Source: a virus
Strand: one strand, 5' to 3'
IMG/VR virus record: IMGVR_UViG_3300023227_000002
Span: 1 to 31,608 of that record
Length of the DNA stretch: 31,608 bases
The notes beneath the pieces are model-generated. The model did no database searches. It had not been told where the DNA came from and saw only the letters and a program-made list of their open reading frames with translations. Numbering within the stretch: the first letter of the stretch is position 1; every line of letters starts with the position of its first letter. The position numbers and the translations under genes are program-made. Below are positions 6,597-31,461 of the stretch, piece by piece.

Positions 6597-6747
6597 AGAA
6601 ACAAGTGAAGTTCAATTATATGCTTACAAAATTATTCTATTAACTCAAATTAATGAAAATAATAGATTGATAGAAGAAATAGATAAAAAACTAACCAGAC
6701 TACATAAAATAAAAGAAAAGGAACGTAATGCACAAACCAAGAACTAA
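6580..6747 (+). CDS. 55-residue coiled-coil protein
   Basis: ATG at 6580 with TAGGAGAGAATA before it; TAA at 6745-6747. The sequence is helical with heptad-like leucines (LIEEIDKKLTRLHKIKEKER). It overlaps its neighbours on both sides by 17-20 bases. Function unknown. Confidence 0.55.
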   Translation: MQLNLKETSEVQLYAYKIILLTQINENNRLIEEIDKKLTRLHKIKEKERNAQTKN

Positions 6748-7108
6748 TACCAATGTACTAGAGATTAACCAATCGCTTATAGAGTTAATGGCAGAATGGA
6801 GAATAAGTGAAAAAGATGATGAGTTAATCTTTACTAAAATTGTAGGATTGCAGCTAAAGAAGATTAGGCTAATAAAAGGTTACACGCAGACTAGAGTGGC
6901 CAAAGCAATTAATATAACCTTTCAACAAATTCAGAAATATGAAAGAGGAACTAACGAGGTTAAGAGTATAAATCTTAAAAAATTATCTGAATATTTTGAT
7001 GTTTCATTTGACTATTGGATTAAACCGATATTAGATGCTAACTTAACATTTTTAACAAAAAGGAGAGAGAATGTATATCCGTTCAAACAAGACTTCGTGG
7101 CAAGATAA
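6728..7108 (+). CDS. XRE-family (Cro/CI-type) transcriptional regulator
   Basis: 126 residues. The HTH_3 domain spans about residues 35-98: GLQLKKIRLIKGYTQTRVAK, AINITFQQIQKYERGTNEV, INLKKLSEYFDVSFDYWI. The recognition helix TFQQIQKYERG is typical of alphaproteobacterial XRE proteins, which is one hint to the host. There is no peptidase or large dimerisation domain, so it is not a CI-like cleavable repressor. It lies mid-way in the early operon rather than divergently transcribed. It is a plausible binder of the TGTTAA/TTAACA inverted repeats (inference). Confidence 0.85.
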   Translation: MHKPRTNTNVLEINQSLIELMAEWRISEKDDELIFTKIVGLQLKKIRLIKGYTQTRVAKAINITFQQIQKYERGTNEVKSINLKKLSEYFDVSFDYWIKPILDANLTFLTKRRENVYPFKQDFVAR

Positions 7109-13541: not shown

Positions 13542-14528
13542 TTATACTTTAAATCTTTTGATTATATTGTCAATATAACATTTAATATTATAGCTATTGC
13601 TCCATTGAATATGACCATGCCAACTAGCTAAAAATCTAGTTAATTTTTGATTATCATTATTTAATAGATATTTATTAATTTTTCTTTTTGCACGAACTAC
13701 ACTTTGTTTTCTTAATAATTTATAATCTTTCCATATTCTATAACCTAAAAAATTTATACCTTGATGGGTAGAAGAAACATGCCATTTCCCCATATTTAAT
13801 TTTAAATGAATACGACAATATTCTTCTAATTGAACAAATATATTTCTTAATAATTTTTTATTATTATCAAGAATAACAATATCGTCCATGTATCTAGCAA
13901 AATATTTTACTTTTAATTTGTGCTTTATAAAATGATCTATGTCATTACCATATATATTAGCAAATAATTGACTTGTTAAATTTCCAATAGGTATGCCTGT
14001 TTGATTGGTGGGTGTTATTAATTTAATTAAGTTAAATGTTTTATTGCATTTAATCTTTTTTCTAATCATTTCTAATAACATATTTGTATCTATGCTAGGA
14101 AAGTATTTTCTAAAATCTGTTTTTAAGAAATATGTAAAGTCATGTTTTCTTAAATTAGACTGAATATATTTAACTCCAGTATGTGTTCCGTATCCTTTTC
14201 TACACGCAAAAGAATTAGGTAAAAATGTTTTTTCAAATATAGGTGTTATAATATTACATAAAGCATGTTGGACTATTCTATCTTTAAAAGATAATGCAGA
14301 TATAAGTCTTTTTTTAGGTTCATAAACATAAAAATTTCTATATTGACCTATTTGGTATTTATTATTGATTAGTTCATTTCTTAATTGAATTAAATTATAT
14401 TGATCAAATTCTTTAAATTCCAAGTAAGAAAATGTTTCCTTTTTACCTTTACAGGTATTTTTATAAGCTAATTGTAAATTATTAATATCTACAATTTTTT
14501 CAAATAAGTTTCTATATTTTAAACCCAT
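13542..14528 (-). CDS. DGR reverse transcriptase
   Basis: 328 residues. Finger/palm motifs in order: LISALSFKDRIVQHAL (75-90), LKTDFRKYFPSID with catalytic D138, GIPIGNLTSQLFANIY (178-193) carrying the GxxxSQ signature that marks DGR enzymes and separates them from group II intron and retron RTs, YFARYMDDIVIL with the YMDD catalytic pair (213-216), and INFLGYRIW (258-266). It has no maturase or nuclease extension, as expected. The family copies the template RNA into cDNA while misincorporating at adenines. Together with avd, TR and VR next to it the set is complete. All catalytic residues are present. Confidence 0.96.
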   Translation of the reverse strand: MGLKYRNLFEKIVDINNLQLAYKNTCKGKKETFSYLEFKEFDQYNLIQLRNELINNKYQIGQYRNFYVYEPKKRLISALSFKDRIVQHALCNIITPIFEKTFLPNSFACRKGYGTHTGVKYIQSNLRKHDFTYFLKTDFRKYFPSIDTNMLLEMIRKKIKCNKTFNLIKLITPTNQTGIPIGNLTSQLFANIYGNDIDHFIKHKLKVKYFARYMDDIVILDNNKKLLRNIFVQLEEYCRIHLKLNMGKWHVSSTHQGINFLGYRIWKDYKLLRKQSVVRAKRKINKYLLNNDNQKLTRFLASWHGHIQWSNSYNIKCYIDNIIKRFKV

Positions 14529-14668
14529 ATTATTGACAATGCGTTTCTATATTTCAATACTCTGCAATACATCAAATCTAAGTTTTGTATTTGCCGAAGC
14601 AGGATAAGAAAGCTGATCGTAAAGATCAAACATAGTAGGCTTGTGGCGTTACTATAGTTTAAATTCAT
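14529..14668 (-). ncRNA. DGR spacer (Sp) RNA region between TR and RT
   Basis: Exactly 140 bases lie between the 3' end of TR and the RT start codon. In Bordetella phage BPP-1 a spacer of about this size is part of the DGR RNA and carries the priming site for cDNA synthesis. Small stems are visible on the coding strand: TGATC-TTTAC-GATCA and AATACA...TGTATT. No convincing coding content. The ncRNA role is inferred from homology of layout. Confidence 0.6.
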
Positions 14669-14787
14669 ATCACAGACGCCACGAGACCCAATATTGTTAT
14701 TAGAATTAGTTGGAGCATTATTCCATTTAGAATTACGTGATCCAGAGTTAGAAGTATTATTCCAATTACCACCGAGTTTCACGACGT
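14669..14787 (-). repeat. DGR template repeat (TR)
   Basis: 119 bases aligning without gap to the VR at 15189-15307, with 16 mismatches. Every mismatch is at a TR adenine (coding strand), 16 of 36 adenines, and none at the other 83 positions. In the VR reading frame TR carries many AAT/AAC codons, typical of a template whose Asn codons can turn into many residues. The 3' 20 bases (14671-14690) are unchanged and GC-rich. Its 5' end overlaps the avd stop codon by 9 bases. Confidence 0.96.
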
Positions 14788-15171
14788 GACTATATCTCTC
14801 TTACCCTTTTTATAACTAATCCACGAATCCATACAAAGAATACAATCAGACAATAATTGCTGAGAATAACCTTGTTGTTTAAGTGTTAATGCTTTCACAT
14901 TTTTATTAGTCATAAATCTTAAATAAAATCTTAATAACGACATGCCTGAATCTACTAAATACATCTTAGATATTTGATTAGATTTACCAGCATCATTAAT
15001 AAGTTGAACTTGTTTTAATAAACATTCTAATATTTGTTTTTTTAATATACCATGTTTTCTAGGTATGTTTTGTATGATTGGATATAAGTAATTTATAACC
15101 TTTTCATATTTTTCCACAATATTCATTTGTTTGTGATTAATCGTTAAATCTTTAATAATGGTTTTCACCAT
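14779..15171 (-). CDS. avd: DGR accessory protein Avd
   Basis: 130 residues, basic, entirely helical by eye, as expected for the four-helix-bundle Avd that pentamerises and binds RT and template RNA. Segments: VEKYEKVINYLYPIIQNIPR, HGILKKQILECLLKQVQLIN, LRFYLRFMTNKNVKALTLKQ and a C-terminal helix. It starts inside the target-gene stop (TAATG) and ends inside TR. Position between VR and TR is the classic order VR-avd-TR-RT. Confidence 0.88.
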   Translation of the reverse strand: MVKTIIKDLTINHKQMNIVEKYEKVINYLYPIIQNIPRKHGILKKQILECLLKQVQLINDAGKSNQISKMYLVDSGMSLLRFYLRFMTNKNVKALTLKQQGYSQQLLSDCILCMDSWISYKKGKRDIVTS

Positions 15172-15175
15172 TATT
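15154..15175. other. DGR target-site hairpin (9-bp stem, GAAA loop)
   Basis: Perfect inverted repeat AATAATGGT (15154-15162)/ACCATTATT (15167-15175) with a 4-nt loop reading GAAA on the coding strand, 13 bases after the VR. BPP-1-type DGRs need a hairpin or cruciform with a GRNA-type loop just downstream of the VR for efficient homing. Here it also contains the TAATG joining the tail-fibre stop and avd start. Confidence 0.85.
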
Positions 15176-16637
15176 CGTTTGTTTTATGATCACAGACGCC
15201 ACGAGACCCAAAATAGTTAAGAGAATTAGTTGGAGCATAAAACCATAAAGAACTACGAGATCCAGAGTAAGAAGTAGTACTCCAATAACCACCGAGTATC
15301 ACGACGTTAGATAGATTATAAGTTGAACCACGACCTTCAGTATTAGCAGTGTAAGCCGTAGAACCATTTGGTCCACCAAAATCATTACCCCAAATCCACA
15401 TACAACCAGTTGATTGGATAACACCCCATTTAGAAGTAAAATTATCGTCTGTTGCACTCATTTGTGTTGTAGTTGGGTCACTTCCTCTTGAACTTGCTTC
15501 TGTAGTTCCATAAGCTAATGCAGAAAATTCTTGATAAGTAGGTGGTCTTTTCCCATGAGAAGATAATAGTTCAGCTTGTTCCCACCAAGTATAAGAACCA
15601 TAAGTTGTTGAACCATTACCACCAAATAAACTTGGTACTTTAGGTGGTGAACTTCCATCTGCTATTGTAACATTATAATAAGATGTTCCATTAGTATGAT
15701 GGTCAACTCCTGTTAAATAAATATCTGACCAAAAATGTCCACCCACTAAAGTCATTCCTCTTGGGTCTGGACAATTAGGTTTCCATTTTAAATCCCATAA
15801 TGAATATTCGTTAATTGATGCAGTAGTATCTCCACCTGATGTTCCTGTTGCGTTTCCACCAGGAGCATAATGAAATCCACCTACTTTTCTAGCATTTGCT
15901 GATGGTGGACTAACATGGTCTGTAGTTGCTTCTAAAGCACCAGCAGTTGTACACCAAATAGCATAATCTGTTCCAGCTGTAGCTGATGGCATAGTAATAG
16001 AAGTTGCTGAAGCTATAGTTTTAACATCACCATTAACTTCAATGTATAATCCTGTGTTAGTCTCCATTGTGAAAGCACCTGTTTTATCCCAAGCAACAAC
16101 TGTTGGGTCAATTTTAGAAAATAATCCATATGCTATACTTCCAGAAGAAGCATCACCCCAAGAAATATCAGTACCATCTGTTGTTAAAAATTGACCAACA
16201 GTACCAGTTGTTAAAATTGATGTAACAGCACTAGCATTTCCATAAAGAATACTTCCTCTACTTAATGCGTCTAATTTATTTAATTCTGTTGCAGTAGAAG
16301 TTACTACTACATCTTCATTTATTTTAGGTGAAGTTAAAGTTTTGTTTGTAAGCGTTTCTACTCCAGCAAGTGAAACTTCTGATGCACTATCTGCCCAATC
16401 TATTGTGTTAGCTGTAAAATTAATAGTTCCTAAAAGAATATCATCAGCACCATCATACATTTTTAAAAGTTGTGCAGTTGCGTCACCCGATGTATCTAGC
16501 CAAACTGTTCCAGCTACTGCTGAACTAGGTCTTGATGTACCTGAATTAGATGTATTAATAGCCTCTAAAGTGTCATTAAGATCACTACGAAAAGAGGGAA
16601 AAGATTGGTTCTGAATTAAATAATCGCCTTGTGCCAT
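15171..16637 (-). CDS. DGR-targeted tail fibre / receptor-binding protein
   Basis: 488 residues. The N-terminus (DYLIQNQSFPSFRSDLNDTL; GTVWLDTSG) and the middle (VETLTNKTLTSPKINEDVVV) resemble phage tail-fibre shafts. From about residue 280 onward the sequence (CPDPRGMTLVGGHFWSDIYL; GKRPPTYQEFSALAYG; TGCMWIWGNDFGGP) is the C-type-lectin/formylglycine-enzyme-like fold used by DGR targets such as Mtd. The VR encodes about residues 444-483 (GGYWSTTSYSGSRSSLWFYA), exposing Tyr, Ser, Thr, Phe and Leu at template Asn/Lys positions. The protein should sit at the tail tip and contact the host surface. It follows the gpJ-like gene. A distant AAAAGGAG (12-base spacing) is the RBS. Confidence 0.92.
   Translation of the reverse strand: MAQGDYLIQNQSFPSFRSDLNDTLEAINTSNSGTSRPSSAVAGTVWLDTSGDATAQLLKMYDGADDILLGTINFTANTIDWADSASEVSLAGVETLTNKTLTSPKINEDVVVTSTATELNKLDALSRGSILYGNASAVTSILTTGTVGQFLTTDGTDISWGDASSGSIAYGLFSKIDPTVVAWDKTGAFTMETNTGLYIEVNGDVKTIASATSITMPSATAGTDYAIWCTTAGALEATTDHVSPPSANARKVGGFHYAPGGNATGTSGGDTTASINEYSLWDLKWKPNCPDPRGMTLVGGHFWSDIYLTGVDHHTNGTSYYNVTIADGSSPPKVPSLFGGNGSTTYGSYTWWEQAELLSSHGKRPPTYQEFSALAYGTTEASSRGSDPTTTQMSATDDNFTSKWGVIQSTGCMWIWGNDFGGPNGSTAYTANTEGRGSTYNLSNVVILGGYWSTTSYSGSRSSLWFYAPTNSLNYFGSRGVCDHKTNE
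15189..15307 (-). repeat. DGR variable repeat (VR)
   Basis: 119 bases ending shortly before the tail-fibre stop codon. Relative to TR it carries 12 amino-acid replacements, including AAT to TAT, AGT, ACT, TTT and CTT, and AAA to ATA or TTA, plus one silent change. The 3' invariant segment (15191-15210 on the plus strand) is the likely initiation-of-mutagenic-homing site. Homology stops at 15189 and at 15307. Confidence 0.96.
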
Positions 16638-26197: not shown

Positions 26198-27043
26198 TTA
26201 TGCTTGGATAGATGAATCGTAGTGTAGTTCAACACCATATGAATCATGGATTTCTCCAACACCATATACTGAAGTCGCTACAATCTCGTCTGCTCTTAGA
26301 GAAGCATCTCTTTGAGTTTCGATTTTAACGTCTTGCATCATTGCGATTGCTAGTGCATCTTTATGGAACGCACCACCTTTGTAATCACCAGCAGTACCTG
26401 TGTTAGCCATATTTGAAGTTTCAAATACGTTCATTCCAGCGATTTTACCAATGTGTCCTGATCTTAATGCTTCGTTAGATAATTCAGTATCTAAACCAGC
26501 AAAAGTATTAGTAAAGCCAGACTTAAGGTCATAAGCGATTTTAGGGTGTAGTACAACTTGACAACCATCAGTAGGTAATGCGTTTTCTTTCAAAGTTGAA
26601 AGAGCATTAAATAATACTGCTGGAGTTATCGCTGCTGAACCATCTCCTAGTGCAACACTAAAGCCATTAAACAAAGCTGTTAAATCTAAGTCTTGTTTTC
26701 TTGCTAGTGCTTCCCCAAATAACTTACCAACATCTGCTGCAACATTTCTTGGTGCAGAGTTTCTTGCTAGGTCAGTTAGAGTAGTCATAACACCAACTTC
26801 AGAAGCTGTAATAGTTACTGAACTTGGGTCGATTGCTGTGTTTGCTAGATCAGTTGCTTCAGCTACTGCTGCTGCACTTACTGCTGCATAGACAGGAACT
26901 TCAACTGCTTTTCCACCACCAGAGATCGCATAGTTTTTAACTAAGTTTCTCATAATGGATTTTTCAGATGCTACAAATTGAGCCTCTGCTACTATCTCTG
27001 TGTATAGTTCCGATAGTGTAGAACTTGTGCTTTCGTTAGCCAT
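26198..27043 (-). CDS. Major capsid protein
   Basis: 281 residues, Ala-rich with long helices and few Cys: LSELYTEIVAEAQFVASEKS, KAVEVPVYAAVSAAAVAEAT, VTITASEVGVMTTLTDLARN, then CQVVLHPKIAYDLKSGF and DGGAFHKDALAIAMMQDVKI-like segments (AFHKDALAIAMMQDVKIETQ). This is the pattern of HK97-fold coat proteins. Preceded by scaffold and followed by a strong hairpin. Codon use is visibly GC-richer than in its neighbours, common for highly expressed coat genes. Confidence 0.9.
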   Translation of the reverse strand: MANESTSSTLSELYTEIVAEAQFVASEKSIMRNLVKNYAISGGGKAVEVPVYAAVSAAAVAEATDLANTAIDPSSVTITASEVGVMTTLTDLARNSAPRNVAADVGKLFGEALARKQDLDLTALFNGFSVALGDGSAAITPAVLFNALSTLKENALPTDGCQVVLHPKIAYDLKSGFTNTFAGLDTELSNEALRSGHIGKIAGMNVFETSNMANTGTAGDYKGGAFHKDALAIAMMQDVKIETQRDASLRADEIVATSVYGVGEIHDSYGVELHYDSSIQA

Positions 27044-27061
27044 GATATTATCCTATTATTA

Positions 27062-27760
27062 TTATTTGTTTAAGTTAATCTCAACAGCACCTGAATCTCG
27101 TTTCTTCCTATATTCTTGATAGGCTTTACGATCTTCTGGTCTTGTTAAGTCCAAGTCCTGTAGATTAAAAGGTTTAACAGTTTTACCACCGACAGCACTC
27201 TGGCTTCCTGAACCAGACAAAGACCCTTGACGGAAGTGTGGGTTACTATCTAAAAACTCTTTAACTCGATCTTCGATTGTAAAAAGTTCTCCGTTTGAGT
27301 TATATCTTACATTAGAATTATTATCAACTACTTCTATTCTACCATCATCATTGTATTTAACTTCGCTTTTTAACAAAGCTACAACTTGCTGTGCATTGAT
27401 AGATTTTTCTTTATTAGCAATAGATAATATAGAGTTATCAACTTTTTCTTTTTTGATTTGATCTTTATATTTATTAAGTTCTGTATCTTTTTCAGACAAT
27501 CTATCTTGCATAATCTTTTCAATATCAGCTTTAGATTTAGCTTCTTTTAATTGCTGTTCTTTTAGAAGTTCTGTCTTTTTGTTTTCTTCTTCTTGAAGTA
27601 ACTTTTGAACTTTACTTTTTTCAGCATCTAATCTTGTTTTGATTATGTTATCTAATTGTTCTTGTGTAAAAGTTTGTTGCTTTGGTGCATCTACTTTTAC
27701 TTCTTCTTTTATTTCTGCTTGTTCAGTTATCGGTTGAACGACCTCGTTTTCTTGCGTCAT
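27062..27760 (-). CDS. Scaffolding protein
   Basis: 232 residues, hydrophilic, with a long coiled coil (about 30-110: TFTQEQLDNIIKTRLDAEKS, LQEEENKKTELLKEQQLKEA, DIEKIMQDRLSEKDTELNKY), then a conserved-looking PHFRQGSLSGSG and a C-terminal LTRPEDRKAYQEYRKKRDSG. The coil and position just upstream of the coat gene are typical of internal scaffolds that direct procapsid assembly. Confidence 0.85.
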   Translation of the reverse strand: MTQENEVVQPITEQAEIKEEVKVDAPKQQTFTQEQLDNIIKTRLDAEKSKVQKLLQEEENKKTELLKEQQLKEAKSKADIEKIMQDRLSEKDTELNKYKDQIKKEKVDNSILSIANKEKSINAQQVVALLKSEVKYNDDGRIEVVDNNSNVRYNSNGELFTIEDRVKEFLDSNPHFRQGSLSGSGSQSAVGGKTVKPFNLQDLDLTRPEDRKAYQEYRKKRDSGAVEINLNK

Positions 27761-27806: not shown

Positions 27807-28049
27807 TTAAATTACAATACCCTTAGTTGTAGGGTAAAATTTTTCTATATCTTGTTTATCTATATCTTTTTTATTTTTAACAGATAATTCCAATATATTG
27901 ATTAATTTTTGTTCTAAAATTTCATTACCGATAATGTGAATAGTTGATATATTTAAAGGTTTTTTAAAAGTATCGTAATATTGTTCAAATAATTCATTTA
28001 ATTTAAACTTATTTGTATTTGTGTTATTATATAAGTATTCTTTATTCAT
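27807..28049 (-). CDS. Orphan small protein after MuF-zincin; candidate immunity partner
   Basis: 80 residues; very AT-rich even for this genome, with 8 bases overlapping the MuF gene end. N-terminal Asn/Tyr/Lys-rich stretch (EYLYNNTNTNKFKLNELFEQ), helices (IHIIGNEILEQKLINILELS) and a C-terminal KFYPTTKGIVI. No structural homologue recognised. It is the only gene between the MuF-fusion and the scaffold. Small genes directly after polymorphic toxins commonly encode immunity proteins, so that is a testable possibility, not a finding. Confidence 0.6.
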   Translation of the reverse strand: MNKEYLYNNTNTNKFKLNELFEQYYDTFKKPLNISTIHIIGNEILEQKLINILELSVKNKKDIDKQDIEKFYPTTKGIVI

Positions 28050-30051
28050 TTATTTCTCCTATTCTTTTAGTTAATGTATCAAATCCTTTTGTGGTGCTGG
28101 GTGCATAGTGTTCAGCTAATTTTCGTTCAATATTTCCTATTTCTTTAATAGGGTGTTTATTAAAAGTAGTATGTTCTGCCCATGCTTCTAGTGTATTTCC
28201 TTTTGTAAATATTTTAGTGCCTGAAGATTCAAGAAATGGAAATTCGTCATAATAAGCCTTACCATGCCCCCACCCATTAGATTCTTTTGTAATAGCACCT
28301 ATGTAATCATTAAATGTTGATGAAAATTGATTATCCGGAGTTATGCCATTAATACCACTATTGTCCATCAATTTATTATCAATTTTGAGTTTAAAATTTA
28401 ATACCGATCTAGGAGATTCATTCATGTCGTTATAGTTTAAATATTTTACAACTTCTTCATCTGTTAAAATGTTTGATTTGTAATTATTGTTAATTTTTGT
28501 ATAATATTTATCAAATTCATCAGGCTTGTATCGACCATCTATAAGATCAGAGGGTGCATTGTTTTCAATTTGGTTAAATTTAGTTTGGTATAGTTTTTTT
28601 CTTTTACTATATGTTCTGCTTAAAATTTTATCGTCATCTATAATATTAGATACTAGATGAGAAGATAATAAATCATCTTTAGTATTGCCATTTGCTATTC
28701 CAGTTGGTGTTTTAAATCCATTTAAAACTTTCTTTCTTGCGTTAGGATTAGCTACTAAGTAATCGTTTAATCTATAATCTATTCTGTGTGTATATTCGTG
28801 CATTACAGTTAGTTGTTTTCTAATTTTATCTTTATGATCTCCTATTTCAAGTATATCAAGATCGGTTGCTGGATTATAATATGCACCCTTACCTTTGGTT
28901 TGTCTTATACTCTTAACTGGTCTAAGTAAAGATATAGCACTTGAATAAGATGTTTTAGTTTTACCAAAACTTTCTTCCACTAAATTTCTTTCTAATTCTC
29001 CAAGTTCTCCATAAATATCTTTAGATTCTTTTTTAATTATAGGTGTTACTTCTTTTAATATATCTGACTCATCTCCATCTTCTTCGTACCAATCAGGATT
29101 AACATAAGAGAATTGGTGTCTGCAATTATAACCACCTCTACTTACCATTGGAGTTCCACCTTTTTTACCACTCCATGAATTGCTATTCCATATTCTAGTT
29201 ATATCAGCGATAGTATAAATACCTTTACCACTTCTATCAAAAACACCATTAATCATATTTCTACAATGCGATCTAGTAGTTGGTATTACATCTCCATAGT
29301 ATTTAACATAAGTTAAACCAGCATCTTTAGCTTTATTAAAGTTTAAAGTTGCATCAAAATCTCTTAATGAATCGTTTAATATTTGACCAGCATATCGTTT
29401 CATGTTATCACCAACTCTTGTACTGGCGTATTTACTTTGAAGTATCTTAACTGCTTCATCTACTCTTGATGCTAGTGCTGGGTTATCTTTATTGTTCTTA
29501 ACATAATCAACTAATCTATTAACTGCTGGGTCGCTTGATGTAGCATAAATTCCATTAATGGATTCTCTTAATTCTTTTTCTAATACAGTAAATTCAGTAC
29601 CAAGTAATGTATTTTGATATACTTTATCTGATAGTATTCTTGTAAAGTTATTAGATACATCTTTAAACTGTGTGTAATATTGTTGTTTAAGATTCTGAAC
29701 TAATGCTAAATCTCCCTTTGTTAGTTCTTGAAATTCAGGTGGTATAAGTCCAATAATTTTAAACTGTCTTTCAACTCTTTTAGCTTGTTCTCCAAATCCC
29801 TTTCTAACTACTCTATCTGCAAATGGTAAATATTCTTTATCAAGTATAGCTTTAATTTGAGGTCTTATTGCAACAGCACTTTGTAGTTCAATTAACTTAC
29901 CAGCAGTTCTAGGAAGTGATGTATCAGCTAAAGATACTATCTGTGCTTCTATTCTATCTAGTGTTTGAGTAAGTTGTTTGTAATATTCAATCTCGGCTTT
30001 TTCAATACCCTTGATTCTGTAGTTTGTTAAATCTTTTATTATATCTGACAT
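28042..30051 (-). CDS. MuF-type head protein fused to a zincin-like (HExxH) domain
   Basis: 669 residues. The N-terminal 320 are the minor head/MuF part: helical stretch, then DVIPTTRSHCRNMINGVFDR (254-273) and PMVSRGGYNCRHQFSYVNPD (301-320) with the Cys/His pattern of Phage_Mu_F. The C-terminal 340 carry VMHEYTHRID with HEYTH (418-422), an HExxH zinc-protease motif, and LEAWAEHTTF (621-630) with Glu candidates for the third ligand. MuF fusions with effector domains are known as phage-borne polymorphic toxins, packaged in the head and injected. Here it follows the portal by three bases. Proteolytic activity, self-processing or a toxin role are all possible. Confidence 0.85.
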   Translation of the reverse strand: MSDIIKDLTNYRIKGIEKAEIEYYKQLTQTLDRIEAQIVSLADTSLPRTAGKLIELQSAVAIRPQIKAILDKEYLPFADRVVRKGFGEQAKRVERQFKIIGLIPPEFQELTKGDLALVQNLKQQYYTQFKDVSNNFTRILSDKVYQNTLLGTEFTVLEKELRESINGIYATSSDPAVNRLVDYVKNNKDNPALASRVDEAVKILQSKYASTRVGDNMKRYAGQILNDSLRDFDATLNFNKAKDAGLTYVKYYGDVIPTTRSHCRNMINGVFDRSGKGIYTIADITRIWNSNSWSGKKGGTPMVSRGGYNCRHQFSYVNPDWYEEDGDESDILKEVTPIIKKESKDIYGELGELERNLVEESFGKTKTSYSSAISLLRPVKSIRQTKGKGAYYNPATDLDILEIGDHKDKIRKQLTVMHEYTHRIDYRLNDYLVANPNARKKVLNGFKTPTGIANGNTKDDLLSSHLVSNIIDDDKILSRTYSKRKKLYQTKFNQIENNAPSDLIDGRYKPDEFDKYYTKINNNYKSNILTDEEVVKYLNYNDMNESPRSVLNFKLKIDNKLMDNSGINGITPDNQFSSTFNDYIGAITKESNGWGHGKAYYDEFPFLESSGTKIFTKGNTLEAWAEHTTFNKHPIKEIGNIERKLAEHYAPSTTKGFDTLTKRIGEINE

Positions 30052-30054
30052 TCA

Positions 30055-31461
30055 TTAAATAGTTTCTTCTGCTACTGTTTCTTGTTGAACTTCGTCTTGT
30101 GTAAAATCTCCAACTTCTGATTTAATATCTATTTCATTAAAGATTAGATTTAACTTCTCATCATCATCAACTACTGCTCTAGCTATTTCTTTATCAATTT
30201 CTTTTGATAGTGTAGGTGATTGAACATTGATTGCTTTTGCTTGTTGATAGAAAGCAAGGTCTGTTGCGTAATCTCTAATGTTAAATGAATCAGGGTAATT
30301 AATCTCTCCATCAAATGTAACTTTTTGAAACATTGCGTATAGTTTAAATAACTGTTCTTCTGCTAATTGTAAGTTATCTGCTTTTTCAGATAGTCTAGCA
30401 TTAAGTAATTCAAATTCAGTTTGTAAAGCTACACCAGAACTAATCCCTGACTTTGTAGTTCTAATAGCACCAGTATGTGCAATTCTATTTATAGATTCTA
30501 CTTTGTTATTAATTGAATCCATAATTGATTGTAAGCTAGAACCAGATGGTTGTAGTAAGTAAGGTTTTAAATTAGGTTCTAATTCATCAGGCATTTCTAT
30601 AATAGCACCAGCACCAGCACTAGCATTGACACTGGGAGTCTTAACTAAACTAGGGTGGTTTGTTAATCTGATTAATTGTTCCATTTCAGAGTATTCATTG
30701 TAAATAGATTTTTGAAGATCGGCTATATCAGTTAAATCTGATTGACCAATTCCTCTCTTATGTGATTTAGCATTATATAAAATAACTGCTGGTATCTTAC
30801 CAATCATATTAGGGACAGTTTCTACAAGTCTTGGTTCTTCTCTATTAGGAATATAGATTGTATCAATTTTATCTCTATACCAAAGTTTAAGATATTGACC
30901 ATTATCTCTATCAACTTCTTCTCTTACTTTTAAATAGTTTAGTTCGTATTTACCATTAGGTAATCTTTCGTAATTCCAATCAAAAACATTTTCAGGTGTA
31001 AGTATTGAAACATAAGGTCTAATGTCTTGTTCTAATTCATCAGCTTTTGTACTTGTTAATATATTAGGCTTATCTAAAATCATAAAACAATGACCATAAA
31101 TAGATGCATAATTCTGTGCTTGTTTAACTACTGAATTTAAGTTGTTACCCTCTAAATCAGCATCTCTTAAAAATGATTGTAAAGATGTTTCATCTTCCAT
31201 TGAACCAAAGTCTCTACTCGGTCTAACTCTAAATAAAAATGATGAGTATATTTGAATAATGTTTTTACAATGATTGTCGCAAGGAGTGTTATCAATTCTT
31301 TGATTAAATTCGTTATCTAGTTCAAGATTATATCTTGATAAATACCTACCTGTTGCATAGTCATATCCACCATTATAAGATCGAATGTAGTATTCCCAAT
31401 TATTAATTGTTTCTGAATAGTCTTTATGGGTTTCTTGTGCTTGATCTCTAGTGTATGCCAT
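30055..31461 (-). CDS. Portal protein
   Basis: 468 residues. Pattern of SPP1/HK97-type portals: N-terminal RIDNTPCDNHCKNIIQIYSS, wing strands (VSILTPENVFDWNYERLPNG, IPAVILYNAKSHKRGIGQSD), the stem/crown helices with DIADLQKSIYNEYSEMEQLI (about 246-265), then TKSGISSGVALQTEFELLNA and a long helix ARLSEKADNLQLAEEQLFKL. Acidic C-terminal tail. It forms the dodecameric DNA channel to which TerL docks. ATG at 31461, three bases after the terL stop. Confidence 0.92.
   Translation of the reverse strand: MAYTRDQAQETHKDYSETINNWEYYIRSYNGGYDYATGRYLSRYNLELDNEFNQRIDNTPCDNHCKNIIQIYSSFLFRVRPSRDFGSMEDETSLQSFLRDADLEGNNLNSVVKQAQNYASIYGHCFMILDKPNILTSTKADELEQDIRPYVSILTPENVFDWNYERLPNGKYELNYLKVREEVDRDNGQYLKLWYRDKIDTIYIPNREEPRLVETVPNMIGKIPAVILYNAKSHKRGIGQSDLTDIADLQKSIYNEYSEMEQLIRLTNHPSLVKTPSVNASAGAGAIIEMPDELEPNLKPYLLQPSGSSLQSIMDSINNKVESINRIAHTGAIRTTKSGISSGVALQTEFELLNARLSEKADNLQLAEEQLFKLYAMFQKVTFDGEINYPDSFNIRDYATDLAFYQQAKAINVQSPTLSKEIDKEIARAVVDDDEKLNLIFNEIDIKSEVGDFTQDEVQQETVAEETI

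What the first reader, a model, noticed from the sequence alone, without database searches (positions are those of the whole stretch)
28042..30051. MuF head protein with a C-terminal zincin domain: candidate head-carried effector
The 669-residue gene joins a MuF domain (Cys/His blocks at 254-320) to a 340-residue region with HEYTH (418-422) and EAWAEH (622-627). Established: MuF proteins fused to varied C-terminal effectors are a family of phage polymorphic toxins, mostly described in temperate phages of Firmicutes. Here one appears in an AT-rich, probably alphaproteobacterial phage with no visible integrase. It could be injected with the DNA, or process head proteins, since no separate prohead protease was recognised.
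Basis: partly seen in the sequence, partly recalled or inferred. Interest (0 to 1): 0.7.

Follow-up and report, generated by a model that had tools for sequence, protein, structure and literature searches.

The report
Swappable protease tails on phage heads
Viruses of the ocean bacterium Pelagibacter and their relatives carry, on a minor head protein, a protein-cutting domain that is swapped as a cassette with a matching small neighbour gene, which looks like an injected weapon packaged with its own safety catch.

Summary
The gene (minus strand, 28042-30051, 669 aa) joins a MuF-like head domain (1-342) to a zincin-type C-terminal domain (CTD). HExxH occurs in all homologous CTDs checked. The AF2 model of the CTD is confident and best matches lethal-factor/PPEP-class gluzincins. 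The CTD is one of at least four interchangeable zincin types (A here, B, C, D, or none) on the same head domain. Each type travels with its own small gene directly downstream (here 27807-28049, 80 aa). Head domains 98-99% identical carry type A, type B or nothing; at least 33 type changes are needed on a tree of 142 head domains. No mismatched CTD/small-gene pair was seen. Type B plus its small gene also sits behind a different, Pfam-recognised MuF domain in pelagiphage Kolga. Head proteins without a CTD lack the small gene yet go with the same capsid protein, so the CTD is not a prohead protease. Nearest isolates are Pelagibacter phages HTVC111P/026P; no integrase was found in 27 records. Best reading: a MuF-type polymorphic effector with cognate inhibitor, in marine phages without signs of integration. 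Injection, toxicity and inhibition are inferred, not shown.

The parts
29026..30051 (-). N-terminal MuF-like head domain, residues 1-342 (C263, C310, H312 invariant)
   Evidence: Sequence; alignments A1 and A10; between portal and scaffold genes; PF06152 E 0.0024
28045..29025 (-). C-terminal zincin domain (type A), residues 343-669
   Evidence: Alignment A2; AF2 pLDDT about 90; VIA-align Z 8.7 to lethal-factor protease domain
28786..28800 (-). HEYTH, residues 418-422
   Evidence: Invariant in alignment; HExxH in all CTDs checked
28249..28275 (-). GWGHGKAYY, residues 593-601; motif shared with type C and with zincin MuF proteins of Firmicutes phages
28171..28188 (-). EAWAEH, residues 622-627 (candidate third metal ligand E622)
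   Evidence: E622, A623, A625 invariant
27807..28049 (-). 80-aa small ORF overlapping the end of the effector gene; candidate inhibitor (immunity-type) gene, family A
   Evidence: co-inherited with CTD type A
27817..29018 (-). Swapped cassette (CTD plus most of the small ORF) relative to L010
   Evidence: blastn breakpoints: 98.3% identity up to window 29019, homology resumes at 27817
30055..31461 (-). Portal protein
   Evidence: SPP1_portal E 2.3e-10; phrog_145 E 4.7e-56
27062..27760 (-). Scaffolding protein
   Evidence: phrog_2303 E 3.4e-9
26198..27043 (-). Major capsid protein
   Evidence: phrog_267 E 4.9e-24

Best explanation
The gene encodes a MuF-type polymorphic effector. The N-terminal 342 residues are a minor head protein that probably docks inside the head near the portal (inferred from gene position and from SPP1 gp7). 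The C-terminal 327 residues are a lethal-factor/PPEP-like zinc protease domain (fold and motif supported by prediction and conservation). A few copies are packaged and delivered into the next host cell with the DNA, where the protease cuts one or more host or competitor proteins (inferred). The overlapping 80-aa gene encodes a cognate inhibitor that keeps the protease off in the cell that makes the virions (inferred from strict co-inheritance). Protease and inhibitor genes are exchanged together as a 1.2-kb cassette between otherwise near-identical phages (shown).
For: Head domains 98-99% identical carry CTD A (window, L002), CTD B (L010) or none (L016), with a sharp breakpoint. At least 14-15 label changes are forced by well-supported branches on the DNA tree, and 33 changes are needed on a tree of 142 head domains. 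A small ORF follows every intact CTD gene that could be checked; short forms go straight to the scaffold gene, usually within 7-16 nt, with few exceptions. ORF families match CTD type: A 32/32, B 32/32, C 3/3, D 1/1. In 292 loci no mismatched pair was found. The ORF families share no detectable profile similarity, so they are CTD-specific. ORF divergence follows the CTD, not the head domain (partial r 0.90 in A, 0.77 in B). Kolga EXVC016S carries CTD B (E 3e-65) plus ORF B (E 3e-7) behind a PF04233 MuF domain that our N-domain profile does not match. Type C CTD matches Listeria B054 and Streptococcus Javan202 minor capsid proteins, which are also followed by small (56-71 aa) ORFs. ORFs are mostly acidic and CTDs basic. 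Precedent: MuF toxin Apk2 is inhibited by the adjacent IapK through active-site occlusion (PMC12226406).
Against: No experiment here shows packaging, ejection, protease activity, toxicity or inhibition. The window's own CTD (+2) and ORF (+1) lack the opposite charges typical of the other members, and within-type charge correlation is not significant by rank. PF04233 does not match the N domain. Co-inheritance of adjacent genes shows one module but does not by itself prove physical binding.
Confidence: 0.66

Rival explanations
1. Same protease-inhibitor module, but the target is competing phages or host anti-phage defence rather than general host physiology. The resident phage's small protein protects against kin, so the module sorts co-infecting phages.
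For: Rapid swapping among close relatives is the pattern expected under frequency-dependent competition; no sign of integration, so lysogen protection does not explain the small gene.
Against: No target known; no orphan small genes without a CTD were recognised in the scans made.
Confidence: 0.2
2. Processing peptidase of virion assembly: the CTD cleaves MuF, scaffold or capsid, and the small ORF is an assembly chaperone.
For: Lies between portal and scaffold; no separate prohead protease recognised; some N domains hit phrog_595, labelled head maturation protease, though the match lies in the head domain, not the CTD.
Against: Many relatives have no CTD but the same scaffold and capsid; MCP of HTVC111P (no CTD) is 85% and of L016 90% identical to the window's. 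Dissimilar CTDs replace each other behind one head domain.
Confidence: 0.08
3. Autoproteolytic release domain: the CTD only cuts itself free or trims MuF during ejection, with no effect on the host.
For: Polyvalent-protein zincins have been proposed to self-process (PMC5512222).
Against: No further effector domain lies beyond the CTD to be released; diversification and a type-specific partner gene are not needed for self-cleavage.
Confidence: 0.06

Closest known systems
MuF polymorphic toxins (Zhang et al. 2012, PMC3482391; Jamet et al. 2017, PMC5576092)
   Same: Head-module gene, variable C-terminal effector, small ORF downstream mainly when an effector is present, metallopeptidase CTDs in about 20% of known cases.
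   Different: Described as confined to temperate phages (mostly Firmicutes); here in Pelagibacter-type phages with no integrase, with PF04233 not recognisable in the N domain, and with all observed CTDs being zincins.
Apk2/IapK of Streptococcus pneumoniae and Pasteurellaceae prophages (PMC12226406)
   Same: MuF protein plus adjacent, largely type-specific inhibitor gene.
   Different: CTD there is a (p)ppApp synthetase; host is a lysogen.
MuF-VIP2 ADP-ribosyltransferase fusions of Microbacterium phages Percival, Goodman and Johann (PMC7302621)
   Same: MuF effector fusion in phages without temperate features (cluster EJ); presence/absence between relatives (Percival versus Floof).
   Different: ADP-ribosyltransferase; no partner gene or cassette swapping in the passages read.
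Zincin MuF proteins of Listeria phage B054 and Streptococcus phage Javan202 (phrog_4728)
   Same: Related zincin CTD (GHxxxYW and E-x-FA motifs) and small ORF directly downstream.
   Different: PF04233-positive MuF domain, Firmicutes phages, remote similarity only.
Polyvalent-protein zincins, MPTase-PolyVal (PMC5512222)
   Same: Virion- or element-delivered zincin domains; PF18818 sub-threshold hits in 6 of 18 type A CTDs.
   Different: Below curated cut-off; the polyvalent proteins described there are multidomain proteins, often much larger.
Lethal-factor-like / PPEP gluzincins (PF07737)
   Same: Best structural match of the CTD model (Z 8.7 and 6.0).
   Different: 14-16% identity; about 200 residues between HExxH and the Glu motif; no accepted Pfam match.

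Membership tests
MuF polymorphic toxin | N-terminal MuF domain | tested here: inconclusive
   PF04233 no hit. Weak support: PF06152 E 0.0024; profile alignment over the MuF Cys motif, E 2.9e-4 but probability 40%; position between portal and scaffold.
MuF polymorphic toxin | Conserved N domain with interchangeable C-terminal domains | tested here: met
   Four CTD types or none on one N domain; at least 33 changes on the tree.
MuF polymorphic toxin | Small immunity-type ORF downstream when an effector is present | tested here: met
   Present and type-specific for intact carriers checked, largely absent in short forms. Immunity function itself not tested.
MuF polymorphic toxin | C-terminal domain is a toxin | not testable with these tools
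   Predicted zincin only.
MuF polymorphic toxin | Carried by temperate phages (reported association, not strictly defining) | tested here: inconclusive
   No tyrosine recombinase in 27 records and no serine recombinase in 9. A Cro/CI-type HTH gene is present and records may be incomplete.
Zincin metallopeptidase (gluzincin) | HExxH plus downstream Glu, conserved | tested here: met
Zincin metallopeptidase (gluzincin) | Zincin fold | tested here: met
   AF2 CTD pLDDT about 90; the eleven best VIA-align rows are all zincins aligned to the CTD. Foldseek alone not significant. Metal-site geometry not measured.
Lethal-factor family PF07737 | Match to family profile | tested here: inconclusive
   No hit for type A; sub-threshold hits for type B.
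Prohead maturation protease | Required wherever the capsid is conserved | tested here: not met
   Same capsid gene with and without CTD.

The most novel reading that the evidence does not exclude
Non-integrating phages of the most abundant ocean bacteria carry a polymorphic, virion-delivered protease with a cognate inhibitor that works between phages: the incoming protease disables cells or co-infecting phages that lack the matching inhibitor, making it a kin-discrimination system of viruses rather than of lysogens.
Probability: 0.2. Interest if true: 0.85.

Novelty: new variant of a known kind. Interest (0 to 1): 0.63.

Why it matters
MuF toxins have been tied to temperate phages, with the small downstream gene read as protecting the bacterium that makes the toxin (PMC5576092). 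Here a lineage with no sign of integration swaps protease-plus-small-gene cassettes at high frequency, so the small gene must serve another purpose: protecting the producing cell or virion during assembly, or sorting co-infecting phages. Cultured phages with CTD B (HTVC026P, Kolga) and without a CTD (HTVC111P) exist with Pelagibacter hosts, so the question is directly testable. It would also give a function to 'hypothetical' genes (gp30/gp31 of HTVC026P) in marine viruses.

Tried and rejected
Whole-protein Pfam, PHROG, NCBIfam and PDB sequence searches gave nothing useful for the window protein. Foldseek on the full model found no significant PDB match; only the second-look aligner did. The BFVD search found two close homologues without a name and nothing else significant. 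A single-sequence fold of CTD B had pLDDT 37 and was discarded; submitting it without an alignment was my mistake. The N domain was modelled poorly (pLDDT under 50 for most of it), so its fold was not compared. Scans of one genome per bacterial or archaeal species found neither the N domain nor CTD A: no sign of prophages, but only relatives that carry the scanned patterns would be seen. Charge complementarity between CTD and ORF holds on average but not by rank correlation within types, so I do not use it as evidence of co-adaptation. A Pfam AAA_30 search was uninformative. Literature search found no paper joining pelagiphages with MuF toxins; the library lacks most subscription journals. A prohead protease role was considered and rejected (second rival).

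Full report
Observation. The 669-aa ORF is present at 28042-30051 on the minus strand, directly downstream of the portal gene and upstream of scaffold and capsid genes. Their reality rests on conservation: H418, E419, H422, D425 and E622 are invariant in 18 homologues as distant as 22-24% identity in the CTD, HExxH is present in all 141 distinct CTDs checked, and the second Glu in all except two genes with disrupted frames. The AF2 model of the CTD is confident (pLDDT about 90); the second-look aligner ranks lethal-factor protease domains first (Z up to 8.7 over 157 residues, rmsd 3.8) and PPEP-3 next (Z 6.0). Foldseek alone gave no significant match, and metal-site geometry was not measured.

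Where it comes from. The window is a whole 31,608-base virus record. Its head genes match only Pelagibacter phages among 50,697 phage records: HTVC111P at 79.9% nucleotide identity, then HTVC112P, HTVC202P and HTVC026P. No tyrosine recombinase was found in 27 records of this group, nor a serine recombinase in 9. A Cro/CI-type HTH gene is present (6728-7108), so lysogeny without an integrase is not excluded.

The C-terminal domain is a swappable cassette. Relatives share residues 1-342 at up to 100% identity but end differently. Four CTD types, all with HExxH, and a form with no CTD were found. Window, L010 and L016 share 98% nucleotide identity through portal and head domain, then carry CTD A, CTD B and no CTD; homology to L010 resumes at window position 27817, inside the end of the small ORF. 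On a DNA tree of 105 head domains, the labels A and B each need at least 14-15 changes forced by well-supported branches. On a protein tree of 142 distinct head domains, down to about 32% identity, at least 33 changes are needed (quick tree with some long branches). A large clade that includes HTVC111P has only the short form.

A partner gene travels with it. Directly after every intact CTD gene lies one ORF of about 51-80 aa, overlapping or within about 11 nt in the first set; short-form genes lack it and are usually followed by the scaffold gene within 7-16 nt. In the window this ORF overlaps the end of the effector gene, with an AGGAG sequence just upstream of its ATG (sequence printed). 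ORF family and CTD type match without exception: A 32/32, B 32/32, C 3/3, D 1/1, and in the enlarged set of 292 loci no mismatch was seen; a few divergent carriers have an ORF below the profile threshold. The families are not detectably related to each other. Within types A and B, ORF divergence tracks CTD divergence (r 0.91 and 0.77) and not head-domain divergence (r 0.26 and 0.21). Part of this is expected from physical linkage; the point is that the ORF belongs to the cassette, not to the backbone.

The module also crosses backbones. Pelagibacter phage Kolga gp59 has a standard PF04233 MuF domain (E 4.4e-15) not matched by our N-domain profile, followed by CTD B (E 3e-65), and gp60 is a family-B small ORF (E 3e-7). 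Type C CTDs match minor capsid proteins of Listeria and Streptococcus phages, which also have small ORFs directly downstream; the Javan202 ORF is the top match of the family-A ORF profile among 643 ORFs (E 1.8e-4). Type A and the Javan202 protein align by profile over HExxH, GWGHGK-YY and the Glu motif, with modest probability.

Mechanism. By analogy with SPP1 gp7 (one or two copies bound to the portal; PMC5576092) and with Apk2/IapK, where the neighbouring protein occludes the active site (PMC12226406), the most likely mechanism is a head-packaged protease delivered with the DNA and held inactive in the producing cell by its small partner. Supported here: fold class, motif conservation, cassette exchange, strict pairing, dispensability for the head. 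Inferred: packaging, injection, proteolysis of a host or competitor target, inhibition.

Against a maturation role: HTVC111P and L016 lack the CTD but have the same scaffold and capsid genes (MCP 85% and 90% identical to the window's).

Membership. Modular architecture and the partner ORF meet the MuF polymorphic-toxin description. Formal MuF homology of this N domain is only weakly supported: PF04233 fails; PF06152 gives E 0.0024; the profile alignment over the Cys motif gives 40% probability. It works like a MuF polymorphic toxin; membership is likely but not proven. Jamet et al. reported no MuF toxin in virulent phages. Microbacterium cluster EJ phages, described as without temperate features, already have MuF-VIP2 fusions (PMC7302621), so the lifestyle point is an extension rather than a first.

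Verdict. A new, unusually dynamic variant of a known kind, in Pelagibacter phages with cultured representatives, and directly testable.

Noticed in passing
window 13542-16637 (minus strand): Complete diversity-generating retroelement: reverse transcriptase (PF00078 E 1e-21), bAvd (E 3.4e-23), Mtd-like tail protein; template repeat 14669-14787 and variable repeat 15189-15307 differ at 16 sites, all adenines in the template.
   Followed up: yes
window 6728-7108 (+): Cro/CI-type HTH regulator in a phage with no integrase; HTVC026P and HTVC111P also have an annotated HTH gene. Lifestyle unresolved.
   Followed up: partly
L005 and L028: CTD A split over two reading frames although the downstream small ORF is still recognisable; sequencing error or an inactivated effector with retained partner gene.
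   Followed up: no
L056:1621-3420: A fourth CTD type (D, HELGH...EYYAE) with its own 51-aa downstream ORF, seen once.
   Followed up: partly
HTVC026P gp47 (L082:21400-21813) and HTVC111P gp50 (L083:21239-21646): Genes annotated as toxin-activating lysine acyltransferase among the tail genes of these phages.
   Followed up: no
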